Source of the DNA: Xylaria sp. FL1777
Taxonomy: Eukaryota > Ascomycota > Sordariomycetes > Xylariales > Xylariaceae
Assembly: GCA_022578965.1 (NCBI GenBank)
Contig: MU400690.1
Span: 21,174 to 85,173 of the forward strand
Direction of reading: 5' to 3'
DNA: 64,000 nt
Shown in pieces: positions 1,578-64,000 of this stretch; the stretch's first letter is position 1; every line of letters starts with the position of its first letter. Both the position numbers and the translations under genes were made by a program. Under the pieces are notes generated by a model. That model saw only the letters and a list, made by a program, of their open reading frames with translations, was not told the origin of the DNA and ran no database searches.

Positions 1578-1587
1578 TAAAAAAAAA

Positions 1588-27270: not shown

Positions 27271-27561
27271 TATAATCGCGCAAGATTTACTACAATACTT
27301 CAATTGCAAGGAAATAAGTTATAACTTACGCATTTAAGCAATTAGGCCATATATAAATTAAAAAATAAAACAATTAATAGAAAAGCTATTTAATAATACA
27401 AATAAAGCAACCATAGCTAATTTTCATTATGTTATCTATAATGTTTAAGTTTATGCTTTAAAATCTAGCGTAATACTTATATCCTTTTTTCTATTATATA
27501 ACTTAGTTTAAACTTACTTTAACTAGCTAGTTAGCCTATTTAGCTACTTTATTTTACTTTA
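27271..27561 (+). repeat. Lone copy of the 293-bp repeat
   Basis: Direct match to 8,961-9,253, the right terminal inverted repeat of the 7.67-kb element, and inverted match to 1,588-1,880. It is less mutated than those copies, keeping CGCGCAAG and GGCCAT where they have AT-rich versions. It lies between the 5' edge of the gypsy RT frame and the end of the frame at 27,562-28,307. There is no partner repeat nearby, so it is a solo end, a MITE-like insertion or a deletion remnant. Confidence 0.85.
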
Positions 27562-37318: not shown

Positions 37319-37327
37319 AAAAGAAAA

Positions 37328-37620
37328 TTAAAGTAAAGTAAAATAGCTAAACAAGCTAACTAGCTAATTAAAATAAGTTTAAGCTAAGTTATATAGTAAA
37401 AATAAAAGTATAAATGTTGCATTAAATTTAAAAGCATAAATTTAAACATTACAAACAACATAATAAAAATTAGCTATAATTGCTTTATTTATATTATTAA
37501 ATAGCCTTTCTATTAATTGTTTTATTTTTTAATTTATATATAGCTTAATTGCTTAAATACATAAGTTATAACTTATTTTCTTGCAATTAAAGTGTTATAG
37601 TAAATTTAGCGTAATTATAC
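37328..37620 (-). repeat. 293-bp terminal inverted repeat, left (copy 2)
   Basis: Equivalent of 1,588-1,880. Outer end TTAAAGTAAAGTAAAATAGC; inner end at the GCGTAATTATA block. Confidence 0.85.
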
Positions 37621-40600: not shown

Positions 40601-43600
40601 ATATCTTTAATCTTCTTTTTATTGCTTTCTGCTAATTATTAGATTTCTTATTTAAGGTTTAAAACTTTTATGCTTTATATAGCTTTTTTGCTAAGCTAAT
40701 AGTTTAGCAAATATATATTAGTTTTTTAGTTGCTAATGTTCTTAAGTTTTTAAGTTTAAGCTTTTAATATAGTTTATTATTAGTATAATAATTTAGCTTG
40801 TTTTTAGTATTATACTAGCTATTATATAAAGGCCTTAAAAATATAAACTTATTTAAAATTTTACAATAAAGTTTATCTTTAGTAACAAAAAGTAAATAGC
40901 TTATTTTTTGTTAACTATATATAGCAGAAAAGGTAATAATTTTTTATTTATTTAAATAGTAGTTTTAAAGCATTTAATACATTTAATAAAATTGCTAGTT
41001 TAATTAAATTTTTTTTAAATTATATTAGTATCCTAAGTAATAAAGCTGTTTTTATTAACAAAAAAGTCCACAATAATGCTAAATTATGCTTTAAAGTTAA
41101 TAATTCCAGTAATATTACTTTTATAAATTTTATTCTCTATTTTTATAGTAAGCTTTAAGCAAAGTTGTATAAATTTTTCTAGCTTTGCAACGCTTAAAAA
41201 AATAGCTAAAATACTTTACAGTTCTATTAATAAAGCTATTATAAAACATAAATCTAAAAAGCTTATATATTCTTAGTTAAAATAATCTATTAAACTTAAG
41301 TCTTTTTTATTATAAAATCTATACTTTAGTGTTTTTTTAAATAAGTTTAAGCTACTATTATTAGCATAATTGTTATGTTTTTTATAAATTCTTAGTTTAA
41401 AAAGATTAAAGCTTTAGCTTGCACTTCGTAAAATCATTAATGCTAGTTATGTTAGCCTTTTAGGCTTATTTACTTCTTTTAGCATTATTAACATAAAATT
41501 AGCACTAAGCCAAAGTTTAGTTAAAAATACTACTTTTTTAAAAAGCAGCAAAAGTATAACAATTAGCAACTTTTATTTTTTTAGGTTATTTTTAAATAAT
41601 AAATATATAGTATTATATTAGTTTAAAATTTTTAAAAGCATTTTGTTAAACTTTAACTTATCTTTTAACGTTTAAAAATCTAAGGCAATATAAGCAAAAA
41701 ACAATATTACTTAATTATTTCATTAGTTTTAATCGCAAATAACCTTTATTATTTTATAGTAACGCTTTTTTAAAAAAGTAGTTATAAAGCTAAATTAAAG
41801 CATATAAATATATATAATAAAACCGTTATAATTTATTTTATTATTAATTTGCACTATTAAATAGTTTAATAAAAAGCTAGTTTTATAAGTACTACTTAGT
41901 AATTTTTATTTATTAAGTTAATTAACTAACTGTAATATTAGCTAAAAGCTTACTTGTGCTTTTTTAGCTGCTGTTTGTTAAAATTCTATGTTTTTTTTCG
42001 AAAAGTTTACGCTTCTATAAAAAAAAGCATCCTTTATATTTACTTAAGTTAAAATCTTATATAATAAAGTTTTTAGTTAAGCTTTATATTTTAACTTATT
42101 GCTTTCTTTTTTTAAAACAAGCTATAGCATATTTAGCTCGATTTATTAATTCGGACTTTTACTAAGGTTATTTAAAAACAGTAGTATTGTTTTTAGCATT
42201 AGCTTAAGAACTTTTATTATTTTAAAATATAATTTAGCTTTTATTTAAGCAATTGTTTAAATAAAAATACTAAAGTACTTTAGAACTCCTATTATAAAAT
42301 CCCTAAAAATAACATTTATTTTTTTGTTTAAAAAGTTTTTAAACTTCTTAGCTTACATTTTTTTAAATTCCAAATTTCTTTTTATAAGCCTTGCTTTTTA
42401 TATCCTTTAAAGTCTTTAATAATCAAAACCTTCTATTTTTAATAAAATATTTTGCTTAGAAAAATTATTGTTTATTTATATATCCTTAATATTAAGTTAA
42501 ATAAAAGACTTATTGTTATTTAAATAAACCTTCTTAATTGTTTAACTTATAAAAAGCTTTTTTTTTAGCTTTTTAGGTTTTTTTTTATCTTTTGTTTAAT
42601 AAAAGGTAGCTTTTTTTAATAAAAGTTTATAACAATTAGCTTAAAACATATTTACGCTAATCTTTCTGCTTAATATATAGCCTTGCAAAATTTCAATGCT
42701 ATTTATATTATAAAAAGTACTTTATATAAAGTTCTAATTAGTTGCAATAAAGCTATTATTTAGCTTACTGTTTATTAAGTTATTTCTTTTAATATTACAA
42801 GCTTTTGCTAATTTTATTTTATAAAATATAAAAGTTTAATTATTAGATTTTTTACTCGAAAATTAAGCTAGCTGCTTATTTTCTAGCTAGTAAAGTTTCT
42901 TATTTTTTAGTTCTCTTTGTTTGTTTTTTATTTTAGCATTTAAATCTTTATTATTTAAAACAAAGTCTTTTTTTTAGAGTTAATAATAAGCTTTTTGCTT
43001 TAGCAGCTTATTATTGCTTAAAACAAAGTTATATATTCATTTTATTGCAGCGTTAAATATTCTTTTTTTATTTTTGCTAATTTTTATAACTTTTAAGAAA
43101 ACTTTTATGCACTTAAAGCTTATAGAAAATTTTAGCCTTTTTAAATACTATTTAAAGTTTTAGTATATAATGTTTTCTTATTTTAATTTATAAGTAAAGC
43201 TGCACTTATAAACGTAATAATTGTTTATACTACATTTTTAACAAATAGTTGCTTTTACTAAATAAAGATTGTTTAACCTTATTTATTATAAAAAATTAAA
43301 CAATTATTTATTTTGTTTTTATTTTTTAAAATTATATTTACTTTTTTATAAATACCTAGAAGTTATAGCATTAATACTAAACATTTGCTTCTTTAATAAG
43401 TTTATATTAATTTTGTAATATTATAGTGCTTATAGTCCTTAATTAATAAGCTAAACATACTAATTCTGCAGTTCTTTTAGCATTTCTTTTAGTTTTTTTT
43501 TTATAATTGCTACGTTCTTTTGTTTTAATTCTAGCTATTATATTTGCTTAATAATATTATTTATGTTTTAATTATAAGCAAAATGTTAAGCTAGTTTTAC

Positions 43601-44700
43601 TTGCTACTTTTTAATAATAACTTTTTTAGCAGCTAATATAATTATATTAATAGCTAGCTTAGCAGCATTAATAGTAATATATAAAAGTTTATTAAGGTTA
43701 TAATTATATAAATAATTAACCTTTTTTTATGCTTTATGTGCTTTTTTTGTTTTTTTAAAGTAAAGATTAGCTTAAATTCTCTATTTATTTAAATGTTTAA
43801 TGTTTTATAAAAATTCTTATATAACATTTTATTTAAGTTATTATATAACTTCTTAAAAGACTTTATTACTTTAGTTTTATTAAACAAGCTTTATCTTTTT
43901 ATAGCTTTTTTACTTATAAAAATAGCATGCTTTTTTCTTTTTTTTAAGGCTTGCTTATCTAAAAATAAGTGCTATAAAAAAGCAATAGCTACGTTTTGCG
44001 TAAAGTCTTTAAGCAATAGCTAGCTTACAACTAAAAAACCTTGCCTTTTATTTTCTAATAAAAAATAGTATTAGCTTAAAAAACAAAGTATATTTTTAAT
44101 TATTAACTACTTTTTATATTAACACGTAAGCTTAAACTTGTTTAATATAAATAAGCGTTAAATTTGCCTATATTATAACTTTTAGAAGTTTTAGCAATAT
44201 TTACTCTTTTTTAAGCTTGTTTTTTATTTTTTTCGTTTATATAAAAACGATTATATTTTTTCCTTTAAAAAGCACTAGTTTTCCAGTAAAAATCCTTTCT
44301 TTTTAGCTCCTTAAAAGTTCTTAGCAATAAATCTTTTAGCTATGCTATCCTAAGAATTATATTAGCTTTTTAACACTTAATTACTGTTTTGCTAAAAAAA
44401 ATAAAAACGCTTTATAAGCTAAGCTAAAAAAAACAGTTCAACATTTTTATACGTTTATTTTAAGCTTTATTAATTAAAAGCTGCTAGCTTAAATGCCTGT
44501 TACTAATTGTAGCTAAACTGCTTATGCTAAATAAATTTTGCTTATTGCTAGCTAAAACAGCTAGATATAATATATCGTAACTTATACATAAAAATTATAG
44601 CAATTAATTAATAAACAAATCAAACATATAAATTAATAATAATAAATTGTTTGTTTGTAGGTTTTATAGTATTATCTGTTATAAATAAAAGATTGTAGCA

Positions 44701-44993
44701 ATATAATTGCGCTAAATTTACTACAATACTTTAATTGCAAAAAAATAAGTTATAACTTATGTATTTAAGCAATTAAGCTATATATAAATTAAAAAATAAA
44801 ACAATTAATAAAAAAGCTATATAATAATACAAATAAAGCAACTATAGCTAATTTTTATTATGTTGTTTGTAATGTTTAAATTTATGCTTTAAAATTTAGC
44901 GCAATATTTACTTTTTTATTCTTATTATATAACTTAGCTTAAACTTACTTTAATTAATTAGTTAGCTTGTTTAGCTACTTTACTTTATTTTAA
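44701..44993 (+). repeat. 293-bp terminal inverted repeat, right (copy 2)
   Basis: Equivalent of 8,961-9,253. It starts at ATATAATTGCGC and ends CTTTATTTTAA, inverted relative to 37,328-37,620. Confidence 0.85.
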
Positions 44994-45660
44994 TAGTTAA
45001 TAATAAAAGGCTAGCAATAAGAAAAATGTTATATATTACTATAATATAGCTAATGCAATAATAGTATAGCTTTAAGATTTTAGTATGCTTAGTAAACATA
45101 TATTTTATAAATATTAGCTAAATATAACTTTACTATATTAAGTTATTTACTCTTATTTTTAGGATTAGCATTATTGCTAAAAAGCATTACAACAAATAGT
45201 TTATAATATATAAAAGCTAAACATTAATTAGCATATATACTTAAACTAAGCTAAACAAAAATACGTACTACAGAAAACATAGCAGCTAAAGCAAAGTAGA
45301 TTTTTAAATAACTGCAATAAGTTAGTAGCTATTTTTAGCTACAAATTAGATTTATAAACGTACTAAAATAAGCATAAGCTAAAGTAATAATAGTAGTAAT
45401 AATAATAAGGTTAGTTATTAAAACAAGTAAAATTAGCAAAGGTAAACAAACAAGCATTTTTTTTAATACTTATATAATTAGCATTTTAGCTATGTATAGC
45501 TTTATTAGCTACTTTTGCAATTAGTACACTTTTATATAAATTATATCCTATTTTTTAACTTTAATAATGCTTAGAAAATCTTTATTTAAGTAAATTATAG
45601 CTTTATTAACAACTCTTTTTTTTATTTACTTTTAAACAACCTTTTTAACTATATATATTT
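44994..45660. other. Intervening sequence containing the empty insertion site
   Basis: Equivalent of 9,254-9,924 in copy 1. At about 45,646-45,668 it keeps the uninterrupted target CTATATATATTTATATATAC into which the 2-kb element inserted in the other copy. No gene seen. Confidence 0.7.
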
Positions 45661-47335
45661 ATATATACGCTATACTATTTAAATATAAATTAAATATGTT
45701 AGTATATATACTATACATAAACTAACTACTAACTAAAATAGCTAAACATTTTTATAAAGCTATTTTAGAACTTTTAATAGCTAAACAATTTTGCAAAGCT
45801 ATTGCTAAACTAAACTTATCTTTTTTGTAATATTAACTTATATAAACTGCTTTTAAATATATATTAATTACAACTTAATAATACTTTTAATAAAATAGCT
45901 CGAATTAAACAATTAGTTTACTATACTTTTGCTAGCCTTTTTATTTCTAATAACTTTACAACTAAACACTTTTATTAAACTATTTAACCTTTTGAACTAA
46001 TATTTCTTCGAGTTCCTTAAAATACTTAACGCATAGTATAATTAATATTAGTTCTAAAGTACTTTTACTTCTTAATCTAAAAATCTTGTTTTTAAGCAGT
46101 AATACTTTTATGCTTTTGCTATACTATTAACGTATAAACTCTACAAATTTTATAAACGTTTAAAATTTCTTTAAAAACCAAGGTACTTTATACGCAGTAT
46201 AATTTATACTGTTCTAGGAGTACTTACGTTTTTCTAAATAGCTCATAGTATATAAGTCATTCTAGGTTGTTTTTAGAACCTTTTTTTAACTATACAGTCA
46301 CTTAATAACATTAATAGCTTCGTGGGCTAACTTATACCTACTTAATTAACTAACTTACCTAATATATATAGCTATAAACTTTGCTAAAGGTATAACACTT
46401 TTGTTTTTATATTAATTAGTTATTGCTACAAGTACTATTATTTTAGCTAAGTCTTAAACTAAAGCGCTTAGTTAACTAATTAGCTAGTTAGCTAGCTAGT
46501 TAGTTAACTAGTTAATTTATTTATTAACTTACTAATTTACACTTTTTTTAATTAATAAATATATTTAATTTAATATAAATTACATTTATAATAAAGTAGC
46601 AAATTATTGCTCCTAATATAAGTAGTTAGATTTAATCAATTGGAATTAATTAGCTAACGCTATATTAAACGGCTATTTTAGGCCTTAGCTAACCTAACAT
46701 CTTACTAAAAAAGCTACCTAAATAAAAATAAAAAGTTAACGCCTTAGCTTAATTTGCTATATAACCTTTAGTTTTTTACATTATAATTAAAATATATTAT
46801 TAAGTAAATATAACATAACACTACAAAATACGCTATTATAGCATTATTAGTTATTTTCTTTTTTAGAATAATATATTATTTTATATTGTTTTATTACATA
46901 ATATGTTTATAAAGGCCTATAAATACCCTAATTCTTATATTTTTCTGTATTAAAATAAAGCAAAAAAGCCTATAAAGATTATATTTTTTCTTTAAGTATA
47001 AAGAAAAAATATAATATATTTATCTTATAACTACCTTTAAATATACCTAATTAATTAAAACATTAGAAATTTAGCATTTAAACAAAACAGAATTAATTAA
47101 AGTTAATAATTAAAATATAGCTATTTTTAGTAATATAGTTTATAAAAAGTCCACTATAAAAGCAAAAACATTGCAGTAATATTTTGATGTTTAGCTATAT
47201 AACTAAGCCATATTTAGCCACTAAAGGCTTTTATAAATACATACCTTTTAAGCTATACATACTAGCATTAATACTTATAGCTATTACGTTTTAAGTATTA
47301 ATAATACTAGAAAATATTATTAGATCTTGTTTTAA

Positions 47336-47366
47336 AAAAACAAGCAATTAAAGCTGCTTGTTTTCT
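47336..47366. other. Conserved hairpin, copy 2
   Basis: AAAACAAGCA and TGCTTGTTTT around the same 8-base loop as at 13,602-13,633. The stem is intact for ten pairs, and one base at its foot has changed from T to C. Confidence 0.55.
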
Positions 47367-50300
47367 GTATATATAGCATTTCTTCTTTTTTTTTTTTAAT
47401 TATTAAAAATGCCTTTAATACATTTATTTTAATTCTTTTAAGAACTAATATACTTTTGTTTTATATTTTCTGTTAGGTTTAAGCAGCATATACTATATAC
47501 TACTAGCATTAAAAATGCTTACACTATAGTACCCTTGTTTAATTAATAGCTATACTAGTTTAATCTTTGCTAAAATGTTTTAATGTTTTATGTTTTTATA
47601 ATATATCCTTATAGTAAAATATATAAAATAAAAGTAAATTTTTCTGCTTTGCTACATATTACTTCTATTAATTATAATAAACTTCTATTTATTAATTATT
47701 AAATATATTGCTTTTTATAAAAAAATCAAGATTATATATAGTTTTATTATAACTATACTATTTTAGATTATATTTTTATGTTTTTTATTTTTTAAAAACA
47801 ACTTATTTTAGTTAATAAAGATTTAGTTATATTATTATTTCATTTGTTATGTTGCGCTACTTTTTTACTTACTTTAGGCTTTTTAGCAATAATTATTAAC
47901 CTAAAAAATAGCTTATATATATTATTAATACTTGTATAAACTATATTAATATGCTAATTATTGCTTTTAACTGCTGTTTAATAATTAATAGTAGTTTAGC
48001 TAAAGTACTTTAAGGTTTTATAATTATAGCTATATAGTATGCTATATAATATTATTGGTTTTTATTTTCTTACACTTAATTAACGAATTTTGCTAGGCTT
48101 ACATATTTATTGAAGATTTATAATAACTTTTCTTTTAATAGTAATAACCTTTAAAAACTATTAGCAATACATAAAATCAATATTATAGCAAACTAGCTAT
48201 TTATTTATAACTGTTATAGTTTGCTTAATATTTAAGCAACAAATATAGCACTTAATTTTTTACGTTTTATGTTTTGCTATTTAAAGCTAAATAATAGTTA
48301 ACTAGTTAATAATGTAAAACTAAAAGCTTTGTTTTTAAGTAAAGCGTTATATTACGCTTAGCACTAAAACAACTTCTATAAGTATAAATTTATTATATAT
48401 ATATTATATTAAACTATTAAAGCTTATAGCTATATAATTATTATACTTAAATTAACTAATAACTAAAACTTTACTGCTAAAGCTATATATTATATTACGG
48501 TTAACTTATGTTTTATGTTAATTAAATAGCAAACTACTAAACTAAACTATTTATTACTATTATTAAATAACATATGTTTTAACTGCTATATATTAAAACA
48601 TTTCCCGTTATTATTAGCTAAAATGAACTACTATTATACTTTTTATGTTCGGTTTATAAAGTAAATAACTATAAAGTAAAAAAAACATTAGCAATAACTA
48701 AAATATAAGCATAATTAATTAGTTAAATTAAAAAATAAACAGAACAATTTACGTAAAAAGACTTTGTTTTTACTTAAACAAATATATAACACACGCTAAA
48801 AATAGCTGCTTTATTAGCAGTACAAAGTATAAAAAAATAGCCTAGGTTTAAGTAATTTATTATACTATATATATATTCCTGAGTTTTTTGTTATAACTAT
48901 AATAAATAGCAATATTTTATAATATATAACTAATATTAATTAATATAAGTTTAGTTTTTTTAGGTTAGTAAATAAGTTATAAATTATTATAAAAAACCTT
49001 ATAATATTTAAGTCTTAATTTTAGATTTGTTTTTTTTTTAAATCCATTAGTTATTTTAGTTATTTATTAATTTAATTATAGTAGTACATATGTTATAAAA
49101 GTAAAATATTTAATAATTATTATTAGCTATTTTTTCTAAGTAAAAAAATCATCTAAATTCTTATAAAATAATAGAATTAATTTTTTTTATAACAAAATTA
49201 ATGTTTTTTATAGCAAGCAATACTTGTTTTACCTTTTATAATAACATATTATTTAATATATAATTAGTTTTATTTGTTTTTATATCATTAAAACATATAT
49301 TTAAATAAAGCTGCTTTATAACATCTTAAAACAGTTTTACAAAATACTTATAAAAGAGCTATTTCTTTTTAATGTATTAAGTACATTTAATAGTTAGTTT
49401 AATGCTATAAACATTTTTGTTTAAAACATTCTAAGCATAAGCTTTTTTTAAAATAAATAACTCTATTTGTTTTTAAGTGTTATAATTAACGTTTGTTGTT
49501 TTAATGCTATCTTTAATTATAACATAGCTATTTTATAAATATTTGCTTTTATAAGCAATAATAAACATAAATAAATCTTTTTTATTATATGTTTATAAAA
49601 CTAGTTTTTAGTCCGTAAAAAGTAATAAAAATTCTAGTAGTATTAAAATTATAACGTTAAAAAATTAATTTTTTATTAATTTTACTTCATTAGTAAATAT
49701 TATATAGTATAAATAGTAAATTAAATAGCTAATATATATAAAATTCTTTAAATAAACAAAAAAATCCCTTGCTTTTGTAGTAATAACTAGCATATATATA
49801 TTATATTTAGAATTAATAATCTGCTAAACAAGAAATAATACAGCTAAAAAATTTGCTATGTTTTTTTAAGCATTTAAAATACTGTTTAAGTAATATTAAG
49901 CTTATAACTTAAATTAAAGCAACAGCTAAATTTTAGGCTTTATATATAAACAATTTTCTGCTTTTGCAAAAATTAATGCATAAAAGCTTAACTAGTAATT
50001 TATTAATTAATTTTCTTACAAAAATAAAGCATAGTAGTTGTTTTTCTTTTTTTTAATAGCTTTAAGCTTTTAATTAGTATAAAGCTATTATAGCTAACTG
50101 TTTTTTTACTTTTAACCTTTTGTTGCTTAGTATTAACTTTATAGTAAGATTATTAATAATGTAATTAAATCTGGTTTTTTTTAAATATTTATTAACCTTT
50201 CGAATTTTAAGTTATATTATACCTTAAAATTAATGTTAAACAAAGGTTTTAAGTGCAATATTAAACAAATTCATACTTTTTTTCTAACCTTACGGATTTT

Positions 50301-51849
50301 AACAACAAATATTTATATTATTATAGCTTCTCTTTTTACTTCGGTAATTTGTTTGTATAGAAAAGAAGTTTTAAGCACTAAAAATTAAAAATATATTTAT
50401 AACTGTAAGCCTATTTAAAAGAAATCCAAAAAGTTAAATAAAACTAGTTGTTATTTAGCAATAATGCTAATAAAAAAAAAAAAACAAGTCTTGTTACAAT
50501 TATGCTTTTTAAATAAAATGCGTAATTACGTAATAATTGCATATAGTATTACTTTTTATATATGCTATTTTTACGTTTTAAATTAGTTTTTTTAGTAAGC
50601 TTACTAAACCTAGTTTATTGTTTTATAAAAAAAGCATTTTAAAAGTAAAAAATAAAAAGCTTTAATAAAAAGCTTAATAATATTATTAAAAAAAGATTAA
50701 TTATTAATACAGTAAATAATAGTAGCAAAACTAACTTTTTAGCTAATAATTATATACTAAAGATTAAGCTATACTAATTATAACGCTTATAGTAAAAAAT
50801 AGCGCTTAAAAATAAATTTTATTAAAAACATAATATTTTTAGTTTTTAACTTTCGCTTTAATAACTTAAGTAATGCTACTACTTTTATTACTGCTAGCAT
50901 TTATAAATACATAGCTATTGTTTACTATATTAATAACCTAAGTAGTGCTAATATTTTTATTGCTGCTAAAAATCATAAGCGTTTTGCGTTTTTTTTTTTT
51001 TTTTTTTAAATATAAAGTAATTATACCTTTTAGTTTTTAGCACTAATTTTATTATTACTACTAGAATAAAGTAGCATAAAATAAAGTAGCATAGCTATAA
51101 ATACTAGTTTAATACTTTTATATACTAAATAAACCATATAATACATATTTTAGTACAGTAAATTAATTAGTATTAAAGAAATAAAATAATTAAATAAAAC
51201 ATGCTTAATTAATGCTAAACTTTTATAACTTTTACTGTTTGTTCTTTTTATATGTTTTAAATTTATTGCTAAGTTTATAAAAAAATAAGTATACCTTTTG
51301 TTTAACTATATTGCAACTAAGCTATGCTTAAATATATTATATAATTACCTTATTTATTATAATTTATTTTATTACTTATTTATATATTTTATATAGCTAT
51401 ATATAAAAAAGTTAATTAAGCATATATATTAAAAAAAGCGTAAGCTTTCTATAAGTCTTAAAGTACGCTATAAGCTAGCTACTTTAAAACTTAAAAAGTG
51501 CCTTAAATCAAAAAAAAAATAACATTAAAGAATATATAATAATTTTCCTTTTTCTTTTTTGTTTTATAAGCACTACTTGTTTATTTAGCTAATTAATACG
51601 CTATTAATGCTATAGCTAGCTACTAATAGGTTTAAAAAAACAGTAAGTAAGCTAAAAAACATACTAACTACTATAAAAAACCCACCTTTTTCGTAAGAAG
51701 TAAAAAAGTAAAGTAGCAAAAAAAAAACATAAATATGCATATAGCGTAAAAGCAGCCTTTATATAAAGGTTACTAAAGTAGCGCTAGCTTAATCAATAAA
51801 CTAAACATACTAAACAGTTAAACTAAGCATTTCTAGTAATTAATATATT

Positions 51850-52030
51850 ATTAATTAATGAATTAATTAATTAATTCACTTTAACGTTAAGTATAAAGCT
51901 TTAGCTACTTTATATACTTTTTAAAAGGTTTTAAATATAGCAAACTTTATTTATAATATAATAAAATATATTAGTACAAAAAGTTTAATTAATTAATTAA
52001 CTAATTAATTAAGTAATCAATTAATTTAAC
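51850..52030. repeat. Two TTAA-type arrays (copy 2)
   Basis: Runs of TTAATTAATTAA at about 51,853-51,880 and 51,986-52,030, matching those at 18,110-18,300 but broken by a few transitions. They lie immediately beyond the C-terminal end of the Helitron transposase frame. Confidence 0.8.
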
Positions 52031-53931
52031 TAATATATATAGTATATTATTACTAGATATAATGCTATTTTATGCCTTTAAAGGCTTTATTATTTTAATG
52101 CTTATAGTTACTACAACTTAATTCTTTAAGCTAAAAACTATTAGTTCTTTATTTAGTATGCAGATTATTTAGCAAATAGTTAATATATTATAAGATTTTA
52201 ATTATTTTATATTTTTTTTTCCTTTATATTAATAAATCTGTTCTTTAATTTAGTTTTTATGTTTATATTATTTAACTTATTTATTAATGCTTAATAATTA
52301 ACAAAAAAGCAGGTATTTAAAAAAACATTTAGCTTTATACTGCCGAGTAACCGTATGCTATTTAAATTAGTAAACTTTAATAATTAAACATATATAAATA
52401 AAAATCTTTTGCTGCTTTTTTTTTTATTATTAGTCTTTTTGCTACTATTTGTTGTTTTATTTAAACATAAAGCAACCTTAAAAAACGTTTTTCTTTAGGC
52501 CTTATACTTAGTTATAGCTAAGCTAGTTATATAAGCTATGCTTGTTTAACTAAAAATAACAGGCAATTTAATAACCTTTAATACTTCTACCTTTTGTTTT
52601 TTAGAACTAGAAAACAGTAGTATAATACTACTTTTTAAAGCTAAATAATATATTGTTTTATTATTTACTTTTTTAATAAAAACATAAGCAAGCAGTTCTA
52701 TGTAAAAATAAATACTTAGCGCTAAGCAAATATATATTACTATAAAAAACAAAATAAACCTTTTCGCTAGAAATTCACTTCTGTTTACTATATTTAAACC
52801 AAAATAAATGTTAGTTGTTATAATAATTAACATTTCTTTACTAAATAAATTATAAGCTAAAATAGCTAAATTAAATCTTATGTTTTTATAAGAACTTTCT
52901 TTTTTTTTTTTATTACTTGCATTTATTTGTGCATATAAGTATTCTTAAACCTTAGTAAAATATTTTATTGTTAGTATATTTAGCTCGTGTTTTAACAAAA
53001 AAATAAATAAAAACAAAGCATAGTTATTATACTATAAAAACAACTATGCTGCTTTAAAGTTAATAATATACTACAGCTTATTATTACGTATAATAAGTTA
53101 AAATTTATTAATAGGCCTAAAATAAAGCAATAAAAAATTATTTATTGCTTAAGCATTTAGTATATTTTAGTTTTTTTTAGTTTAAGTTCTAAAGCAAAAT
53201 TAATCTAAAAAACTACACAATTATATATTGCTTTATGCTTTTATTTGCTGTTTTAAGCAAACTAATTTTACAACGTTTTTTATTAGTACTAAGCTTTTAG
53301 CTTCTTTAATAGCACAAGCAATTTAAGCAATTGTTGCTTTTTTATTACTATTGCTTATAATTTTAATAGCTTTATAAATAATATAACTTTTATATTTGTT
53401 ATTTATATTTTATATATATTAATTGCTAAAATTATAATTGTTGCTTTTTAAGTTTTATTATTAGTATTTTTTTTATTTTTTATGCGTTAAGTGCTTACTT
53501 AAAGTATAGCTATATGTTGCTTGTATAAAAGCTATTAAATTTGTTAAACTTTTAGCTAGCAATATGCTACTTATTAAAAAAAACTAAGCAAAGTTGCTAG
53601 CTATAAAAATATATAAAAGGCTACTAAATTGTTTTTTGTTTTTTATATTATAGTTTTTACGCATAGCTTTTTCGACTTAAAATAAAAGTTCAGCTAAAAC
53701 TATGCTAATTTTATTAATAATAAAAACAAGCTTATTTTGCTATAATTATATAATACCTTTATTTTTTAATGTTAAACTTCGAAGAGTTTATTTATTGCAT
53801 ACTTTAAACCCTATTGCTAAATATATTATAACGCTATTAATACTTACTGCTGCGCTTTTAATAAAAGCAGTAATTAATATTCTGTTTTTTTTTCCTAACC
53901 GAAAAAACACTTTATATATAGCTTAAATAAT

Positions 53932-53961
53932 AACAGATTTTTTAATGCTGCTTTGTTTTCC
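53932..53961 (-). other. Remnant Walker A motif of the PIF1-type helicase
   Basis: Reads GKQSSIKKSV, derived from GxPGTGKSxx by G-to-A and C-to-T changes, followed about 25 codons later by the VLITA (VLxTAPTG) block. Position and spacing fit PIF1 and Helitron helicases. Confidence 0.75.
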
Positions 53962-56085
53962 TAAAAAACTAATAATAATAAGTAGTTTTAATACATTTTT
54001 TTGTACTATGTTAGCATTAAAGTTAAGCTTTTAGCACACAAGCAAAACTACTTTACTTTATTTTATATTTAAACTTTTTTTTATATATATTATACGGCTA
54101 ATAATGCAGTATTTTATTAAAAAAAAATATTTAACAAAAGCAGTATTGCTTTTAAAATTATTTAATGCTAATATTTAGAAATATTATTAGTTTTAGTTAA
54201 ACTTAAAACTTAATATTATAAACTTACTTCTTTTAACTAGGTTTTTATAGTTATATATATAACTTAGCTTTTTTAAAACAATGTACTTATTTTTTTTTTT
54301 AATGTGGTTTTTTAAAATTGCTAATTTAGGTTACATTAGTTGTATTAATGCAACGCTAATTTATTTAGCTAGTATAACATTATTACTATTTTTACTATTT
54401 CTTATTTAGTTAAAAATATTTGTTTAATTCTTAGTAAATATATTAAAACGCGCATTTTTAATGTTTTTAACGTTTGCTTGCTAAATAAGTTATTTAAAAT
54501 TATTTAATATACTAAATAGTTTATTTATTTTTTTAAGTAACTATTTAAACCGGTTAAAATTATAGCATAAAAAATATAGAGATTTTTCCGGCTAGTTTTT
54601 TTCTATGTTTATTAGTTGCTAATTGTTATTAAATAATAAGTTATTATTATTTATTAAATTAGCTTATTGATCTTTTTATGCTTTAGCATTTTTTACTGCT
54701 TTTTTTTTTAACTTTTTTTAGCTAATTTAGATTTTTAACTTTAAATAAAAGCCTGCTATTTAACTAAGCATAATAATAATTTTAAAGTTTAAAAGCAAGC
54801 ATCCTAATTAAAGTACTAAAACAATGCTATAAAACAAATAATAAAAGCTTTAGTATAACGCTCCGATTTAAATCGTTTATATTTATATTATTAATAAGTT
54901 ATTTACTAAAAACTAAAATTTGCTTTTTATTAATAAGCTTTTAAACTATTTTTTTAAAAAAAAAAGTATTTTTGTTTATTAAAAAATAATGTAGTAATAA
55001 TTCCTTTTTTAGTTTTTCTGTAAAATAAAAGCTGCTTATATAATTATATAAACATATATTTTAAAGCATTATTTCTTTATGCACATAAACTTGCATATAA
55101 AAAAAAACTTAACTCTTTTTGCTTAATAAGTTTAATAGTAGCTAAATAGCATTAAAACTAAAGCAGTTAATTATGCACTATAAGAAAATCTCTAGTACGT
55201 AAATATAAAAGTAGTTAAAATTAACTATAGCTTAGTTTTTTATAAATAAATAATAGTTTAACATTTTAAGCAAATTAGCATAAACTTTAATAGCTAAAAG
55301 CTTTTAAATAGTTGCTAGCTTATTAAAAAGCAAAGCTATAAACCTGCAAGAAATTATATTAGCTTTATTATCTATTATAAAAAATAGCATAATAAAATCG
55401 CTTTTTATTTTTTCTATGTTTTTTTTATAAAGTTGTTTCTATTAATATTATGCTATTTAATTTAGGATTTTCTTTGCAAACATTATAAGTTTATAATGTT
55501 TAATTAGTACTTTTGTTATATAATTTAGCATATAATATATAATAAAAAAAGTTTAAGGGCGTTCTTATAAAAATGTAAAGTTATAATTGCATTAAAATAT
55601 TAATGCTATAGTTAAATTAGTTTTGCTAACATATAAATAGTTTCTTTTAATTTTAATAAAGCTATTTTTAGTTATATATGTTGCTTTTACTAACGTTTAA
55701 AAATAGCTAAATTAACAAGCTGTTTTTTTATGTAGTTCTTTTTAATAAGTATTTATATAAGCGTAGTAGTTATTACAAGCGTTTAAAAAAGCATGCTGCT
55801 ATTTTATATATAACATTAATAATGTTTTATTAAACTAAAAATGCTTTAGTATATTTAAAACATTAATACAAGTAATAGCATAGCTAACATTATTAACTAA
55901 ATTATTATTTAAACATTACTTTTTTTATTAGTATTCCAAATTTTAATTATTTAGTAAGCATAATGCACCTCGTTAAAAAAAGAATTTATATAGCTAATAA
56001 TACGCTTTTTTAGGCCTAAAATCTTATTAGTAGCTAAATCATTAATTAGTTTATGCATTGTAGTATTACTAGCTAGCTATAACAT

Positions 56086-56100
56086 CTTATGCAAATAAAA
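56086..56100 (-). other. Remnant HUH (His-hydrophobic-His) catalytic motif of the Helitron Rep domain
   Basis: The minus-strand codons read Phe-Tyr-Leu-His-Lys. In the family this position is Ser-Leu-His-Leu-His-Gly or similar. TAT for the first histidine is a single CAT-to-TAT change, and Lys for Gly fits G-to-A changes. The context (YYSIIKSNSQRS before, MLQLA after) fits the YxGTxExxGRGSLHLHxxLWL pattern. Confidence 0.8.
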
Positions 56101-59100
56101 GCTCCTTTAACTATTGCTTTTTATTATACTATAATACGTAGCAACTTTACTAAATGCTTTAGCTTTTACTACGTTTTTAATAAACATATTTATATATATT
56201 TAAAACATTTAAGCAGCAGCTATAAGATTTTAATATATAGTTTTAGCAAATTTAAAGCTTTATTAATTACTATTAAAGTTTACCTAGTACTTATTTAATG
56301 CTTTAGCTTATGCTAAGTTTTTAAAAAGCGTTATCTTAAAAATTATAAAACTACTTTAATTCTTAGAATTAATAATAAACTAAATTATAAGTAAGCTATA
56401 CGTAACAATTAGCAACTATAATTAACCTTTAAAAATATTTTTCTGTTCGTAAAAGTAAAGCTATTTATACTTAATTAATTAAATATTCCTTAATATAGTC
56501 TTAATATATAAATTGCTATAATATTTATAACAGCAAACAAAGCGCTTTTTAGCATTTAAATCTATTAGGCTTAAAAAGCAGCATGCTTTTTAAACTGCAG
56601 CTTATATGTTTCGTTTAACTAAGGCCTTTAAAATAAAAGTACTATTATCTTAAATCTTATTATTCATAAATAAAAATAAAAAAAAAGAATTTGCTATATA
56701 ATAACTTTTATGTTATAAAAAACAACACTAAACCTAGACGTTTTAGCTAACGCTAGTATTACAAGCATAAACGTTATTTTTAATAATAAAAGCGTTCTTA
56801 TGTTTTTTTTCCTTATATAAAAAAAAATGCAAAAATGCCTTTAAATAAAAATCTCTATTAAAGCAGTTAGCAAAGCTAATGCATTACTATATCCCAAAAT
56901 ACTTCATACTATTAACTTTAATAAAATTAATAGTCTTTGCTATAAAACAAGTAGTATTAATACTACTTTTAAGTAAAGTAGCGCTATAAAAACCTATGCT
57001 TAATATAGTCTTTTTAATCTCTAAAATAGCATCCTTATTAATACTAGTTCTTTAAATATCTTTGTTTTTATTAAATATTGCAAATATACTAAACCTTATT
57101 AAATTATTTTATTTTATTAAGCTAAGCTACTACTGCTGCTTAATACTAAAAACATATTAAAAGCTTTATAGTTACTTAATTAATACATTAAGAATAAAGT
57201 TTTAGTTAGTTATATAGTTTGCTTAAGCAATGTTAAGATTTTCTTTAGCAAAAATATATATCTTATTTATTAATAATAGTAATATATTATTAACTAAAAA
57301 ACTAGCTAACGTTGCATTATTAATAAAAATATTTACATATAATAAATTATTAACTTTTAACTAAGCTAAAGCATTTACAACTTATTAACAACGTACACAT
57401 AATAAATTCCTAGCATTCTGTAGTTTAAGCTTTGTAATATTTATCTAAAAAACTCAGATAATATTACGTAAACTAAAAACTGCATAAAGCAAAGCAGTAG
57501 CAATATATAAAACATCTTGTTTCTAAACCATAATTTGTCTTTTTAATCAGCAATAAGCATTTGCTAATTATTTTTGATCTTTAGCATAAAACTTAATAAT
57601 GTATCCGTACAAAATATGCAAAAAAATCAATTGTTTCTCTATAAAACTAAAACAACGTAGCTCTTTAAAATATTAATAAAAATAGCCCATATTAAAATAA
57701 TTAGCTATAGCACACTTTAGTATTTACTTAGCATTAATAAATCTAATATAAAATAAGCATATTTATACAAGCTACTCTTTGGTTTTTATAATACGTAAAA
57801 AACATAAGCAGCATTAAATAATCTTTGCAAAATTTTCGTTTTAGTTTAAATTAGTATTACTAACTTAGTTAATTTAACGCATTAAATCATTACATAAATA
57901 TTATTAGCAAACAACGCAAAAATTAAAAAAAAAATAAATATTACTTATAGCATTTTATGCGCATTAAATAATCTTTGCTTAATAGTTAAGTTAAACCAGT
58001 TTACACTAATTAAAACTAGTACTAAGTAGTTTGCAATGTTTGTACTTTTTTTTTATAGCGTTTATATATTAAAGCAAAACTTTAGTTCTTTTATAAGCAA
58101 CTTTAATAAAAAGTTATGCTATAAAATAATTATTATATAAAACTTTACAAAAGAATTGTCCTAAAACTAAACATACTAAGTTTTAATACTATTTTACTTA
58201 ACATAATAATTGCTAATAATTTAAAGTTCTTTTAACTAACATTGTTTTTTAAAGCAAAATAAAACATTATATAATAATAAAAAAGCAAGTCTAGCAATAA
58301 AAAAGTCAAAGTTACATTAAACGTTATTAATAAATCAAACAAAAAAAAACTTTCAGCTATAAAAAATAAAAATAGCGCAAAACGCATTTGTTTTTATAGT
58401 TTAAAACTTACAAACAAAACAAATTTGTTTAATCAATTCTAAAAAATTAAATAACTAGTAAGCTACGCTATAAAATTAAAAGTATTTAAAGTCTGCTTTT
58501 CTACATTAATAATTTATGTATTAGCAAATCTAAAAGCATTAAAAACCTATATTTTAGGTAAACTGTTGCAAAAGTATCCATAAATTATCATATTGCAATA
58601 AGTTATTAAACCAAAAAAAGTCCAAAGTTTAAACAACAAAAATGTTGCAACTAGTTCTTTAGTAAAACATTATGCTAATTATATAAGTAGTAATCAAGTT
58701 AATATTATATAATAAAAAAAAAAAACAGTTATATATTAATTACTTTTATTAAAAATTAAGTATAATATAAACTATCTTTATATAGCATTTCTATAGTTTT
58801 TATTACTTATAAAAAATACGCCAAGTTTAATAGTGCTAATACTTTAATTTAAAATAGCTATAGTATAACACTAAACTAGGTTTAAAAATATAATAGCCAT
58901 TTAAATTATGTTTAAATAGTTAAGCTATAAAATCTTAATATTTAAGCAATAAACCCAAAAGTAAGCAACGTTTAGATTTAAACAGAAAAACATCCGTTAG
59001 CGTAGTTCTAGATTCTTTTAGGAAACCTAGTTTAATCTACAGCTTTATATGCCCTTGTATCCAAAATAATTCATTAGCTATTTATTGCTTTATAAAACCC

Positions 59101-59831
59101 TTTGTATTATATAGTAATACGAGGCACAAATGCATAAAAATAAACAGGTCTTAATAAAACCATACTTTAATCCTTTTTAAACGTAAAGCAACACTTATGT
59201 TTTTTTAACCTTACTATTAAAGTATTTAATATAAAATATATAACTACTTAATAATATTTAAACAATAGCAATTATTTACTTAAACCTTTTAAAATACTAG
59301 CTAAATAAAATTATTTATATTAATATAGTTAATTATATAACTAACTAATTATTGCTTAATTAAATACAACATTTTATATAATTTTATTGCTAATAATATA
59401 TAAACAAAATAACCCTTAAAGCTATTTAATTAAACTTTATACCCTTTTTATGTTTTAATTGTTATTATAGCTTTTAAAGGCCTAACTCTAGTTATAAAAA
59501 AAGCTTAAAAAGTAAAACTATTTGTAACCCTTAATGCAGATTTTTTAACCTAAATACTAAAATTAATCTAGTTTTAACTTATTGTTTTTTTAAACCTGGA
59601 ATTTACTAGATATGCTTTTAATATTATAATAATATATACTAATACTAATCCTGTGCTTAAAATTCCTAAAAATAACATAGTTAATAAATTATATTTAGCA
59701 TAGCGTAGTTTTATAGCTTTTAGATTTCCTAAATTAAAAAAATAAAAAACAATAAAGAAATGCTAATTTATTTCTAAACAATAAGTAAATAATAGGAAAT
59801 TTAATGCTTCCTGTTTTATTATTACAATAGA

Positions 59832-59962
59832 ACTACAAAATAGCACGCGTTACTAAGTATAAAACTATAAAATAGCACGTGCTGCTAAATAAAATAAAGC
59901 TATAAAATAGCATATACTATTAAATATAAAATTATAATATAGTATATGCTAACAATGCTTAA
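59832..59962. repeat. 32-35-bp tandem repeat with palindromic AGCACGTGCT core
   Basis: Four units start at about 59,832, 59,864, 59,899 and 59,931, each ACTATAAAATAGCACGYGYT-like. The second keeps the perfect palindrome AGCACGTGCT; the others have transition-altered forms (AGCACGCGTT, AGCATATACT, AGTATATGCT). A fifth unit stands alone at 60,089. The group is flanked by two copies of TTAATGCTTYCTGTTTTATT, at about 59,801 and 60,000. Confidence 0.8.
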
Positions 59963-60957
59963 CGTTTATAATTAAATCTTTTAAAAAAAAAAAAAAAAAT
60001 TAATGCTTTCTGTTTTATTATTTTAACATACTTATATATTATTAGTACTTAGTTTAATGTTTAAAAGTTAATTCTTTAGTAAAATAATACTATAAAATAG
60101 CACGCGTTATTTATGCATTATATTTGCAGTTAAATTTTAATTATATATTATATAATATTAAATCTATAAGTTTTAATAAAAAAAAAGTCTTAAAGTTTAT
60201 AAACCTATAAGAATTATTACAACATATTTTTATATAGTAATAAATTTTACTAATAGTTTGATTTGCTTACTTTATATAAGCTTTTTAAATAGTAGTAATA
60301 TAAGCATTATTGCTTTGTTTTATTTTTTTCTGTTTTTTTTTTATTTATTTTTGTTAGTTTTGTTTTAAGTTATAGTTTTTACTCTTTAAGTCAGTTACTT
60401 TTTATACAATTGTATTACAGCATTTATAAGTATTCATTGCTTAACTATACTTTTAAAGGTAGCTTAACACTGTATAACCAATTTTATAAATTTATGTAAA
60501 GTGTTCTTAAAATAATTAATTAAGCTAGTAACTAGTAAACTAAACTATTGTAAAGCTTTACTAATATACGCAGTAATTTTAATACTTAATAATAAATTAA
60601 ACCTAGTTAAAAATGTTTATTTGATTTAAAACTAAAACGTTATAAGTAGCTTAATAATAGCTAATGTTTTAGCTTTATAAAAAGTAAAATATTATGCATA
60701 ATTAGCACTTTTACTATAGTTTATACTTTAATTCTTTTTTAGCTGCTTAAAAATCTAAAAAGATAGTTTAATGTTCTTTTACTAAGGTTTATAAAATATT
60801 ATGTTAAAGTTATAGCTTTTAAATTTTCTTAAAATCTATAAAACTAGTTTTATTAGTTTATTTGCTAAACTTCTAGCTTTATACTTAGTATACTATGCTT
60901 AGTAGTTTTAAAGTATAATTTTTAGTATGCTTTTATTTCTTTAACAAGTATTATACG

Positions 60958-60977
60958 CATATATATATATATATATA
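60958..60977. repeat. (AT)n microsatellite
   Basis: About nine to ten uninterrupted AT units, single copy in the window. Confidence 0.9.
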
Positions 60978-61141
60978 CTTATATTAAACAGCTTTTTTAA
61001 AGATAACTATACTATATAATAGTTTCTTTATTGCTTTTTTTATACTTTTTATTATAGCTTTTATTTTTTCTGATTAAATATTTTAAACTTTATTATAGAT
61101 TTAAAAGCATAAATTTAACGTAACTAATTTTTTTTTTTTAT

Positions 61142-62588
61142 AAGTTGCAATTATGTTTTATTATTTCTTTTATTTTTTATAATAATAAGCCGGTTTAACA
61201 ATATAACTTATAATATATAAAACTACTTAAATATAAAATACAATATAAAACTTAAGTTTGCTAGCTACCTAAAAACAATTGTTAGTTAATATAGTGCTTT
61301 AATATATAATACTATTTTTGTTTAGTTAAATATATATTAACGTAAAATAACTATAGTAAACAGCTTAATATATTATAATGCGTTTTTTTTTGCTTGTGTT
61401 AACTTTTGTTTTAAACAAATTACCTTAAAATCAATAAAAATACTATATTAGTAAGTAATATTTTAAATTGTTTAAAAATCTCTATAAAACTTAGTATATT
61501 TATTTCTAATGTTAAACAAAACAATTTAAATTAGCATTAGCTTTTTATAGCAACTATAACTAATATTATAAATTATATACATATTTAACTTACTTAGAAA
61601 TAAAAACAAAAAGCATTAATTTTTTTTTTTATTTGTTTTTTGTAGTATAACCTAAGAACTAAAGGTTTAGTTTTTGCTTTTACAGTTGTTATTATTTTAA
61701 CTAAAGTTAACAAAAAACAATAAGTACTAATGTTAGCTTTAATTTATATGCTTAGCTTAACATAGCATATTACTAAAAAAGTACTTAGTAATATAATTTG
61801 CTATTAGTATATTAACACAATAAATATTATTGATTTTACTAATTGCAATAAAAAAAACTTAAATATTAAAAATATAAACTTAATAACTTTTATTACTAGT
61901 AAAAATAAAAAAGACTTTATATTTTGCATTATAGCTAATATAATTAAATTTGCTAGTACTAAGGAGCTAAGTTTGCTATTTATAGCTAGTTTATTACTAT
62001 TACATTGCTAAAAGCATATTTAAAAACAATTAGTATTTACTACAGCATTAAAGCATATTAGTATAACTATAATTACTATTAAAAAAAACATAGCTAACTT
62101 AAAAACTAAAACTTTGCTTTATACTTTTTAAATTGCAAAATTTATTAATAAAAGCTTATTTATTATTTAATTGCTTATTATATTAATACTTCTTAAGCAC
62201 TCTATTTTTAAAAACAGAAATATAGTTAATGCTAAAACTAAAAGTGTTTTTTATATACTTTTTAATTAAAGCTTTACTAAAACAATAATATTAATAATAA
62301 ATGCTTTAAATATAACGCTATTTTTTAATATTACTAATATAAATACTCTAGTATTTTTAATTTGGTTTACTAATTTAAAAACAACTAATAAAAATAATAT
62401 TAACTTTGATTTAGCTTTAAATAAAAATAATAATAATAAGGCTATTGCTTTTATGCATAATTTTTATAAAAGAGCTTATATAACTAACAGAAGTACAAAA
62501 GATAATATGTTGCTTATAATTACGCATTGCTTAAAACGTAGTATTTTAAAGGCCTATAAGAAAAAAGCAATAGTTAAAAAGAAAAAAT
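61142..62588 (+). pseudogene. Degenerate reading frame, unassigned; strand uncertain
   Basis: A plus-strand frame (codon start positions leave remainder 2 on division by 3) is unusually open. From about 62,268 to 62,588 there are more than 100 codons with no stop, and 61,442-61,530 is also clear. The translation is Ile/Lys/Asn/Leu-rich and ends at TAA TAG. Restoring G and C in thought makes it rich in Asp/Glu/Val/Ala, which is what the antisense of a Ser/Thr/Gln/His-rich protein looks like. The minus strand (reading ISSFIKIMHKSNS near 62,440) is therefore an equal candidate. I recognise no domain on either strand. Confidence 0.35.
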
Positions 62589-63906
62589 AATAGATTTTTT
62601 TGTTATATTTTAGCATAAATCAATAAATGTTTTTTTTTTTAAGCTATAAGTTCTGTTTTTTGCTTATTAAATTATATTAAAAAAAATTATAAAATTTTGT
62701 TATATATTATTATTATAGCTATGCTGCTACTTACTTTATATAATATAATACTATTATTTATTTTTAACTTTGTTTTTGCTTACATTTATTTGTATTTAGC
62801 TATATTTGCACTAATATATTTAATTCTTTATATAAGTCCTAAAATTATTCTTAAAATATATTTTATTATGTATTTATTAAGTTAACAAAGCTAAACTATT
62901 ATAATATATATCTTAAGTTATATAAAACTTTAAAACAAATTAAAAAAAAAAGAATATTTATTTTTTTTGATTTGCTATTACATTATTAAAAATATATTAA
63001 ATATAAACAATGCTATTAAACTAATGTTTTAAAATGTTAATCTTATTAAGCTTTTTAATAACTTTTTCTTTATTTTTTTTTTAGTTCTATATATATATTT
63101 TTGCTGCTACTAATATTATATTTTGCATTATATAATCCTTTAAGTTGTTTAAAAACATTAAGAAAATATATAGCTAATAAAACTTATTTTTAGCTTTTTT
63201 TTTTATTGCTTGCTATTATACTTTAGTGCTTTGCTGTGCTATATAAAGTAATAGTTTAAAAATTAGTTTTTATACTTAAGTGTAGCTATATATTTACTTA
63301 TAATAGTAGTTTTTAAGTAAGCAGCTATATATTTTGCTGTAAATTTTACTAAAGGTTAAAAAAATAATATATAATAAAATTAATAAATAAAAAAAATAGT
63401 AAGTATACTTTGATTTATTTTACTTAACTAAAACTTGTATTTTTAAAACAATTACTGTTATATTAAGTGTAATATATACTATTATTATTAATTTTGCAAT
63501 AATAGCGTTATTTTATAACAATTATTTATATTAATAGGACTTATTATAGAACTACTAGGTATAATAAAGCATATTAACTATATTTTTAGCTTACTTATTG
63601 TTTATTTACGGCTGATTTTTTTACGCGAGCTTAAATAGCTATATTAGTTGTTTTTATTCGGCTAAATTGCTTACTTTTGCATACCTAGATATATTTTTAT
63701 TTTTGCTTTTTTTTTCTTTTAGCTATTATGCGTATATTTTATTTACTTTTTAGTACTTTTATTTTATTTGCTTAAACAAAAAACTATAATAGTTTTGTTT
63801 TAATTTTTACGTTTATATATAATCTTTAAAAAGCTATATATTAGCAATAAAGTTTAGCTTTTTTTATAGCAGTAATTACGTTAGCTATTATATTTATATA
63901 ACTTGC
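62589..63906. other. Degenerate DNA up to the unmutated junction
   Basis: It includes a 62-codon stop-free plus-strand piece at 62,697-62,885, all Ile/Leu/Tyr and probably not coding. A less mutated patch at about 63,605-63,660 keeps TTTACGGCTG and ACGCGAGC. Around there the minus strand reads as a Lys/Gln/Ser-rich protein-like segment, but no family is recognisable. Confidence 0.4.
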
Positions 63907-64000
63907 TGTCACGGGAGGTATGAAGCATCAAAGGTCAGGTACAATAGTCAATATATCTCTAGTCTCATAGTAGGTATCTAACAAGACTAAAGCTTGAAGA
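63907..64000 (+). mobile_element. Probable 5' edge of a young, unmutated LTR element
   Basis: At 63,907 the composition changes within a few bases from A/T-only DNA to ordinary mixed sequence, starting TGTCACGGGAGGTATGAAGC and continuing to the window end. LTRs begin with TG, and a sharp switch from RIP-mutated to unmutated DNA is what a recent insertion into an AT-rich block gives. Only 94 bases are visible: the other LTR, primer-binding site and coding region lie outside. A simple edge of the AT-rich block would be the alternative. Confidence 0.5.

What the first reader, a model, noticed from the sequence alone, without database searches (positions are those of the whole stretch)
52200..58260. 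A complete Helitron transposase is still readable through saturating RIP
About 2,000 codons in one frame keep every landmark in the right order: the FPxxFPYG block, the HUH motif (HLH now YLH), Walker A, motif Ia, Walker B and motif VI of a PIF1 helicase. Stops are TAA/TAG at positions where Gln, Arg or Trp is expected. No frameshift was needed, so decay was by point mutation, not indels. Ordinary ORF finding would miss it.
Basis: partly seen in the sequence, partly recalled or inferred. Interest (0 to 1): 0.8.

Follow-up and report, generated by a model that had tools for sequence, protein, structure and literature searches.

The report
Giant mutated Helitron in a fungus
The decayed gene is the transposase of an unusually large (about 46 kb) jumping element of the Helitron2 kind, present in dozens of copies in a Xylaria fungus, which appears to have destroyed it by a cytosine-mutating defence that largely spares cytosines preceded by G.

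Summary
The RepHel-like transposase is there, but one claim fails and it is only part of the story. On the minus strand DUF6570 (E 2e-11, 16 of 16 copies scanned), the HUH end of Helitron_like_N (best E 3e-4) and an AAA/helicase stretch (best E 1.7e-3; both with stops read as Q, both below Pfam's cut-off) lie in the right order, but not in one frame: the low-stop frame changes near 55,980 and at 54,710, where the window copy has an A that 17 of 20 copies lack. The gene belongs to a 46-kb repeat (window 27,096-63,908 plus 9.2 kb beyond the contig). A 3-kb piece has 37 near-complete copies; 11 of 21 copies with both ends placed measure 46.0-46.5 kb. The ends are of Helitron2 type: 16-bp asymmetric inverted repeat, hairpins, 3' ATTT, insertion next to T; an empty site fits on the 3' side. 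A 2019 review gives 14 kb (fungi) and 39 kb (maize) as maxima. 99.5% of differences between 17 copies are transitions. C-loss is not plain CpA RIP: C after G is nearly as common as in genes, TCA almost gone. Host: Xylaria sp. FL1777.

The parts
27096..63908 (-). Copy A of the giant element (36.8 of about 46.05 kb; the 5' 9.2 kb are not in the window, where the contig ends inside another repeat)
   Evidence: 3' boundary at 27,096 with different flanks (by eye) in the 21 ends lined up; 5' part continues 9.2 kb in three other copies; 11 of 21 copies with both ends placed are 46.0-46.5 kb
52200..57720 (-). Decayed RepHel transposase (element coordinates about 15.4-20.9 kb)
57306..57720 (-). DUF6570 domain (frame 0)
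   Evidence: Pfam PF20209, window copy E 2e-11 to 7e-11, above its cut-off; 16 of 16 copies match
56089..56250 (-). HUH end of Helitron_like_N (YLH within 56,106-56,080)
   Evidence: PF14214 profile 135-188 of 191, E 6.3e-4 in the window copy with stops as Q, best 2.7e-4, 5 of 16 copies, below the cut-off of 28.9 bits
54719..55979 (-).
   Evidence: Lowest stop density in frame 2 in 6 of 6 blocks, mean of 17 copies
54710..54710 (-). Extra A in an A-run: frameshift of this copy relative to 17 of 20 copies
52200..54690 (-). Helicase segment, frame 0; Walker A at 53,967-53,926, Ia at 53,883-53,833, Walker B at 53,733-53,698, C-terminal motifs within 52,524-52,339 (motifs named by eye)
   Evidence: AAA_19 best E 1.7e-3 (4 of 15 copies, not the window copy), at the Walker A-B stretch in the two copies whose position was shown; hhalign to the host PIF1 at Walker A/Ia, E 0.033, probability 1.5%
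27151..27166 (-). 3' arm of the 16-bp asymmetric terminal inverted repeat, 55 bp inside the 3' end
   Evidence: Exact complement of the 5' terminal 16 bp of the C168 copy; 1000 shuffles reached at most 11 bp, 1000 random internal pairs at most 15
27096..27150 (-). 3' terminal stretch with hairpin stem GCATAC/GTATGC, ending CTTAGATTT
   Evidence: empty site
1..23870 (-). Copy B of the same element, interrupted at 9,925-11,916 and cut at 23,870; continues to C185:10,314

Best explanation
The finding is the RepHel transposase gene of a giant (about 46.05 kb) autonomous Helitron2-type rolling-circle transposon of Xylaria sp. FL1777. Inferred mechanism: the HUH Rep domain nicked the element at its 5' end, the PIF1-type helicase unwound it, the subterminal 3' repeat and hairpin marked the stop, and the whole 46 kb went as a circular intermediate into T-rich sites without target duplication, in a burst of dozens of near-identical copies. 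Shown: ends, length, copies, target base, order of the domains, and that the copies mutated independently after amplification. Afterwards (inferred agent) the host's repeat-directed mutation (two RID-like and one DIM-2-like DNA methyltransferase genes are present) turned C to T on both strands in each copy separately, hardest at TCA and CCA and least at GC, leaving no open frame.
For: DUF6570 in 16 of 16 copies, Helitron_like_N and AAA_19 in the right order. Ends: 16-bp inverted repeat, 5' arm at bases 1-16 (C168 copy) and 3' arm 55 bp from the 3' end (window copy), beyond all shuffled and internal controls; predicted hairpins at both ends, one copy each; 3' end GATTT, 5' GCCGAAGG, resembling FoHeli1/2 of Fusarium oxysporum ('TCAGCCGAAGGCTGAC', end 'ATTTT', 3' repeat 38-51 bp inside; PMC5148889, abstract and sections 5, 6, 13 read). 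T[A/G] precedes GCC in 20 of 20 copies; T follows the 3' end in 15 of 21 (P 0.005 if T is 0.41). Two uninterrupted copies of the invaded repeat read GTTAT|TACATTT and GTTAT|TGCATTT at the window's 3' junction. 37 near-complete copies of a 3-kb piece, window copy included; 11 of 21 two-ended copies 46.0-46.5 kb. 99.5% of 69,983 pairwise differences are transitions; 1,657 of 1,677 variable columns are pure C/T or A/G, and no pair of 17 copies is closer than column shuffles give.
Against: Rep and helicase matches stay below Pfam's curated cut-offs; PF05970 never matched; protein searches with A1 and A3 found nothing (only about 8,000 candidates scored in each); four profile searches of the PDB found nothing; a RIP-tolerant alignment to the host PIF1 was no better than shuffles; the AlphaFold model is worthless (pLDDT 32.6). 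The transposase is only 5.5 of 46 kb, so it might be a passenger. Only 11 of 21 two-ended copies have the plain length. The spread of pairwise identities (sd 0.0042) exceeds all 200 shuffles (maximum 0.0036), so the copies are not perfectly independent; unequal mutation load may explain it.
Confidence: 0.8

Rival explanations
1. The 46-kb unit is another giant element (Starship, Polinton or similar) into which an ordinary 6-10 kb Helitron had inserted before the unit spread; the RepHel gene is a passenger.
For: The gene occupies 15.4-20.9 kb of 46 kb; most of the rest has no recognised gene; several other stretches have low-stop frames of unknown kind.
Against: The outer ends are themselves Helitron2-like: asymmetric inverted repeat, hairpins, ATTT end, T target. 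No tyrosine recombinase, integrase or PolB domain matched in 126 segments scanned with X at stops, though power is low after the decay.
Confidence: 0.13
2. The repeats are segmental duplications or assembly artefacts rather than transposition.
For: The genome is in 588 contigs, several copies stop at contig ends, and one pair lies head to head 231 bp apart.
Against: The 21 3' flanks and 20 5' flanks printed look different (by eye); each copy has its own mutations; the 3' junction has an empty counterpart.
Confidence: 0.03
3. The stretch is not a Helitron transposase; the motifs are read into AT-rich noise.
For: Individual Rep and helicase matches are weak; tests with the host PIF1 failed.
Against: DUF6570 at 2e-11 with all 16 copies matching, Helitron_like_N at 3e-4 to 7e-4 at the expected place, near absence of hits in the 126 segments, and Helitron2 ends.
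Confidence: 0.04

Closest known systems
FoHeli1 and FoHeli2 of Fusarium oxysporum (Helitron2 type; PMC5148889, abstract and sections 5, 6, 13 read)
   Same: 5' GCCGAAGG core (FoHeli1), asymmetric terminal inverted repeat with the 3' arm some 40-55 bp inside, hairpins at both ends, 3' ATTT(T), insertion after a T (the paper gives TNAT|T in a legend and TNAT|A in the text; here TTAT|T in the window copy)
   Different: They are about 5-6 kb; this element is about 46 kb; the inverted repeat is 16 instead of 12 bp; this one is destroyed by mutation
Largest reported Helitrons (maize up to 39 kb, fungi up to 14 kb, per review PMC6431247, passages seen)
   Same: Rolling-circle element enlarged by extra sequence
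   Different: Longer than both figures, and amplified as a largely uniform full-length unit
Repeat-induced point mutation (RIP) of Neurospora and other Pezizomycotina
   Same: C-to-T on both strands of repeats, TA/AT ratio raised, RID- and DIM-2-like genes present
   Different: The base before the C matters most (T and C > A >> G); C after G is nearly as frequent as in genes

Membership tests
Helitron2 / Helentron-type Helitron | Asymmetric terminal inverted repeats (5' arm terminal, 3' arm subterminal) | tested here: met
   16 bp exact between the C168 5' end and the window 3' end, 3' arm 55 bp inside
Helitron2 / Helentron-type Helitron | Terminal hairpins | tested here: met
   Predicted folds of one copy of each end; not tested across copies
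Helitron2 / Helentron-type Helitron | Insertion next to T without target duplication | tested here: met
   5' T in 20 of 20, 3' T in 15 of 21, two empty sites for the window's 3' junction; no copy had both sides checked against an empty site
Helitron2 / Helentron-type Helitron | HUH Rep domain | tested here: inconclusive
   PF14214 E 2.7e-4 to 7e-4 with stops read as Q, below the curated cut-off; catalytic tyrosines not identified
Helitron2 / Helentron-type Helitron | PIF1-type helicase C-terminal to Rep | tested here: inconclusive
   AAA_19 1.7e-3 and hhalign 0.033 at the Walker A stretch; PF05970 not matched; negative
Canonical Helitron1 | 5' TC and 3' CTRR, insertion between A and T | tested here: not met
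   3' end CTTAGATTT or close variants in the 21 ends shown, window target T|T
Starship | Tyrosine recombinase captain near the 5' end | tested here: inconclusive
   No such domain in the 5' 9.2 kb of one copy scanned in six frames with X at stops, low power
RIP | C-to-T transitions on both strands confined to repeats | tested here: met
   only two gene-rich control stretches were read
RIP | Preference for CpA | tested here: inconclusive
   Within each 5' base CpA loses most, but the 5' base matters more: fraction T in polymorphic columns TCT .79, ACA .56, GCA .19

The most novel reading that the evidence does not exclude
A Helitron2 transposon can move as an intact unit of 46 kb and reach dozens of copies in a fungal genome, so rolling-circle elements belong among giant cargo-carrying fungal transposons; and the repeat-directed mutator of this Xylaria has a 5'-base rule (pyrimidine > A >> G) under which GpC cytosines are nearly immune, a different specificity from the CpA rule by which RIP is usually scored.
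Probability: 0.55. Interest if true: 0.75.

Novelty: new variant of a known kind. Interest (0 to 1): 0.6.

Why it matters
If true, the size reached by Helitrons rises from the reviewed 14 kb in fungi and 39 kb in maize to 46 kb, with the whole unit amplified some dozens of times (about 1.7 Mb if 37 copies were complete, an inference). It offers a test of how much DNA rolling-circle transposition can carry. The copy set (99.5% of differences are transitions) is also a natural assay of the mutator's sequence preference; a 5'-G block would make CpA-based RIP indices misjudge such genomes and points to a property of RID or DIM-2 enzymes that can be tested.

Tried and rejected
Search of the own genome with PF14214: nothing, controls silent too, so uninformative. 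PF05970: three matches at two loci, taken as host PIF1-type genes. Protein searches with A1 and A3: none. PDB searches with the X-read window frame and with A1, A2, A5, A6: none. RIP-tolerant alignment to the host PIF1, whole window and helicase region: no better than shuffles, so it does not support the helicase. Period-3 test of copy A against copy B: P below 0.004 in two of the 52 blocks with data, not used. AlphaFold of the helicase half: pLDDT 32.6, discarded. Ten low-stop segments of the element at E up to 10: no family. Rfam and tRNA scans of the window: none. A first alignment mixed orientations and was redone. My first reading that the element ended at 63,908 was wrong: other copies go on 9.2 kb.
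Full report
WHERE. The window is bases 21,174-85,173 of contig C185 of a 58.7-Mb genome in 588 contigs; window end = contig end. A RID-like methyltransferase of this genome (498-aa frame on C14, 561,925 bp) is 100% identical over 98% to a protein of Xylaria sp. FL1777 on a contig of that length, so the host is that fungus (Ascomycota, Xylariaceae). The window is 14-25% GC and has no ORF of 120 aa.

THE GENE. In the helicase half AAA_19 matches 2 of 15 copies with X (0.014) and 4 of 15 with Q (0.0017), never the window copy; in the two copies where the position was shown (E 0.25 and 0.0029) it is the Walker A-to-B stretch. Other weak families (TreT_GT1, WH_RGF3, IPT, DUF4224, DUF7723, pXO2-34, Etd1) appeared at E 0.004 to 2.5 and I take them as chance; WH_RGF3 is about as strong as AAA_19, which shows how weak the helicase match is. 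hhalign of 12 copies with the host PIF1 aligns Walker A and Ia to each other (E 0.033, probability 1.5%). A RIP-tolerant alignment to that PIF1 gave nothing. I conclude that the order DUF6570 - Rep - helicase is real, the first strongly, the second modestly and the third weakly supported by sequence. That DUF6570 goes with Helitrons is recalled; a paper search listed none with both terms among the eight shown of 1,693.

THE FRAME. Stop density over 17 copies is lowest in frame 0 in 5 of 8 blocks of 57.66-55.98 kb, in frame 2 in 6 of 6 blocks of 55.98-54.72 kb, and in frame 0 in 9 of 10 blocks of 54.72-52.62 kb. The second change coincides with an A-run where the window and two further copies have one A more than 17 of 20 copies; without it the middle and helicase parts are one frame, as the 12 copies of A3 were read. 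This could be a real slip or a homopolymer error of the assembly. The first change is common to the 17 copies. So 'no frameshift' is refuted.

THE ELEMENT. A 3-kb piece of the gene has 37 near-complete copies (window copy included) and 40 of at least 1 kb, the others at 88-92% identity (40 of 65 candidates were scored). Pieces further along are repeated in mostly the same contigs: 36-39 kb, a sharp edge at 27,096 and beyond 63,908. The 21 ends at 27,096 that I lined up have different flanks by eye. Upstream, three copies (C168, C155, C151a) agree until 9.2 kb beyond 63,908 and a fourth to its contig end; a search with the C168 end found the same edge within 6 bases in 20 of 25 tabulated copies, C168 itself left out, and in 27 of 33 if the eight further hits that reach it are counted by hand. 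With both ends placed in 21 copies (paired by contig and order, so the largest may join two copies), 11 measure 46.0-46.5 kb, two 44.1 kb, and eight 46.9-131 kb. The window copy lacks the 5' 9.2 kb because at 63,909 a different repeat begins, which is 98-100% identical in 13 places (the window's included) and also stands at other contig ends.

THE ENDS. In sense orientation: 5' (T[A/G])GCCGAAGGTTTTCTGC, 3' GCAGAAAACCTTCGGC, then 55 bp ending CTTAGATTT. The 16-bp complement, between the 5' end of C168 and the 3' end of the window copy, exceeds 1000 shuffles (maximum 11) and 1000 random internal pairs (maximum 15). Both ends are predicted to fold into hairpins. The two bases before GCC are TA in 14 and TG in 6 of 20 copies. 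Copy A sits inside another repeat (23,871-27,095; ten near-full copies including this one), two copies of which show the uninterrupted site GTTAT|T[A/G]CATTT. This resembles the pattern published for FoHeli1/2. CTRR, the mark of canonical Helitrons (recalled), is absent.

CONTENT. X-read scans (51 minus-strand and 45 plus-strand segments of the window part, 30 of the C168 5' part) gave UQ_con at 2.2e-7, above its cut-off, at L075:8,753-8,917 minus, some 8 kb from the 5' end, and Helitron_like_N at 0.063. Left out were three of 54 minus-strand segments over RepHel (two in its frame, one other by oversight) and nine of 54 plus-strand segments opposite it. So the cargo is mostly unidentified; one piece resembles a ubiquitin-conjugating enzyme.

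THE MUTATION. Of 69,983 pairwise differences between 17 copies (three of 20, truncated upstream, left out) 99.5% are transitions. Of 1,677 variable columns 1,657 are C/T or A/G only; no pair is closer than column shuffles give, though the spread of identities (sd 0.0042) exceeds all 200 shuffles (mean 0.0029, maximum 0.0036), which unequal mutation load could explain (GC 0.166-0.202). Amplification thus mostly came first and each copy was mutated alone. Retention of C against T is flat (0.42-0.62) in two gene-rich stretches; in the element it is 0.01 at TCA, 0.03 at CCA, 0.14 at ACA and 0.44-0.67 at GCN, and in 10.3 kb of neighbouring AT-rich DNA 0.00, 0.01, 0.11 and 0.50-0.82. In polymorphic columns the T share runs TCA .90, CCA .86, TCT .79, CCT .78, ACA .56, ACT .29, GCA .19, GCT .11, so GC is spared but not wholly immune. 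My searches for a published 5'-base rule of RIP (listings; passages of PMC12543289, PMC7296669, PMC6963459 and PMC4858203) showed none, only CpA statements where a context was given; that is no proof that none is in print. The genome has two RID-like and one DIM-2-like gene; only the C14 one was compared with named proteins, the other names are my reading.

NOVELTY. A review (PMC6431247, passages) gives 6-14 kb for fungal and up to 39 kb for maize Helitrons. Listings for giant or large Helitrons showed no larger one in titles and abstract starts (20 of 38 papers, 13 of 13, 10 of 38). No paper in the library holds Xylariales, Helitron and transposable elements together. I rate it a new variant of a known kind.

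Noticed in passing
63909-64000: The last 92 bases are the end of another repeat, 98-100% identical in 13 places (this one included), several of them contig ends, with older copies at 84-96%: probably a recent insertion into copy A where the contig breaks.
   Followed up: partly
23871-27095: 3.2-kb piece of another repeat (ten near-full copies, 89-91%); its first 235 bp recur 7.6 kb further on in at least seven copies, as long terminal repeats would. It lies in copy B and was itself invaded by copy A.
   Followed up: partly
9925-11916: 2-kb repeat inside copy B, about 40 copies scored at 86-89%, higher GC (25%) than its surroundings.
   Followed up: partly
27252-27574, 37327-37624, 44697-44994: A 300-bp sequence repeated in both orientations inside the element, also in copy B, 85-92% alike.
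   Followed up: no
28898-29271: Tandem array of a 102-bp unit, 3.6 copies, inside the element near its 3' end.
   Followed up: no
L075:8753-8917 (minus), outside the window: Ubiquitin-conjugating enzyme (UQ_con) fragment in the element's 5' part, opposite in sense to the transposase.
   Followed up: partly
61500-63000 (+), 33300-34800 (-), 41100-42000 (-): Stretches with strikingly few stops in one frame, perhaps further decayed genes of the element, no Pfam match.
   Followed up: partly
whole window and C185:1-10300: C after G is little depleted while TCA is nearly absent; GA and TC are the scarcest dinucleotides against expectation, so TGA hardly occurs.
   Followed up: partly
L080:1-718 (C151): Two copies lie head to head with 231 bp between their 5' ends.
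   Followed up: no
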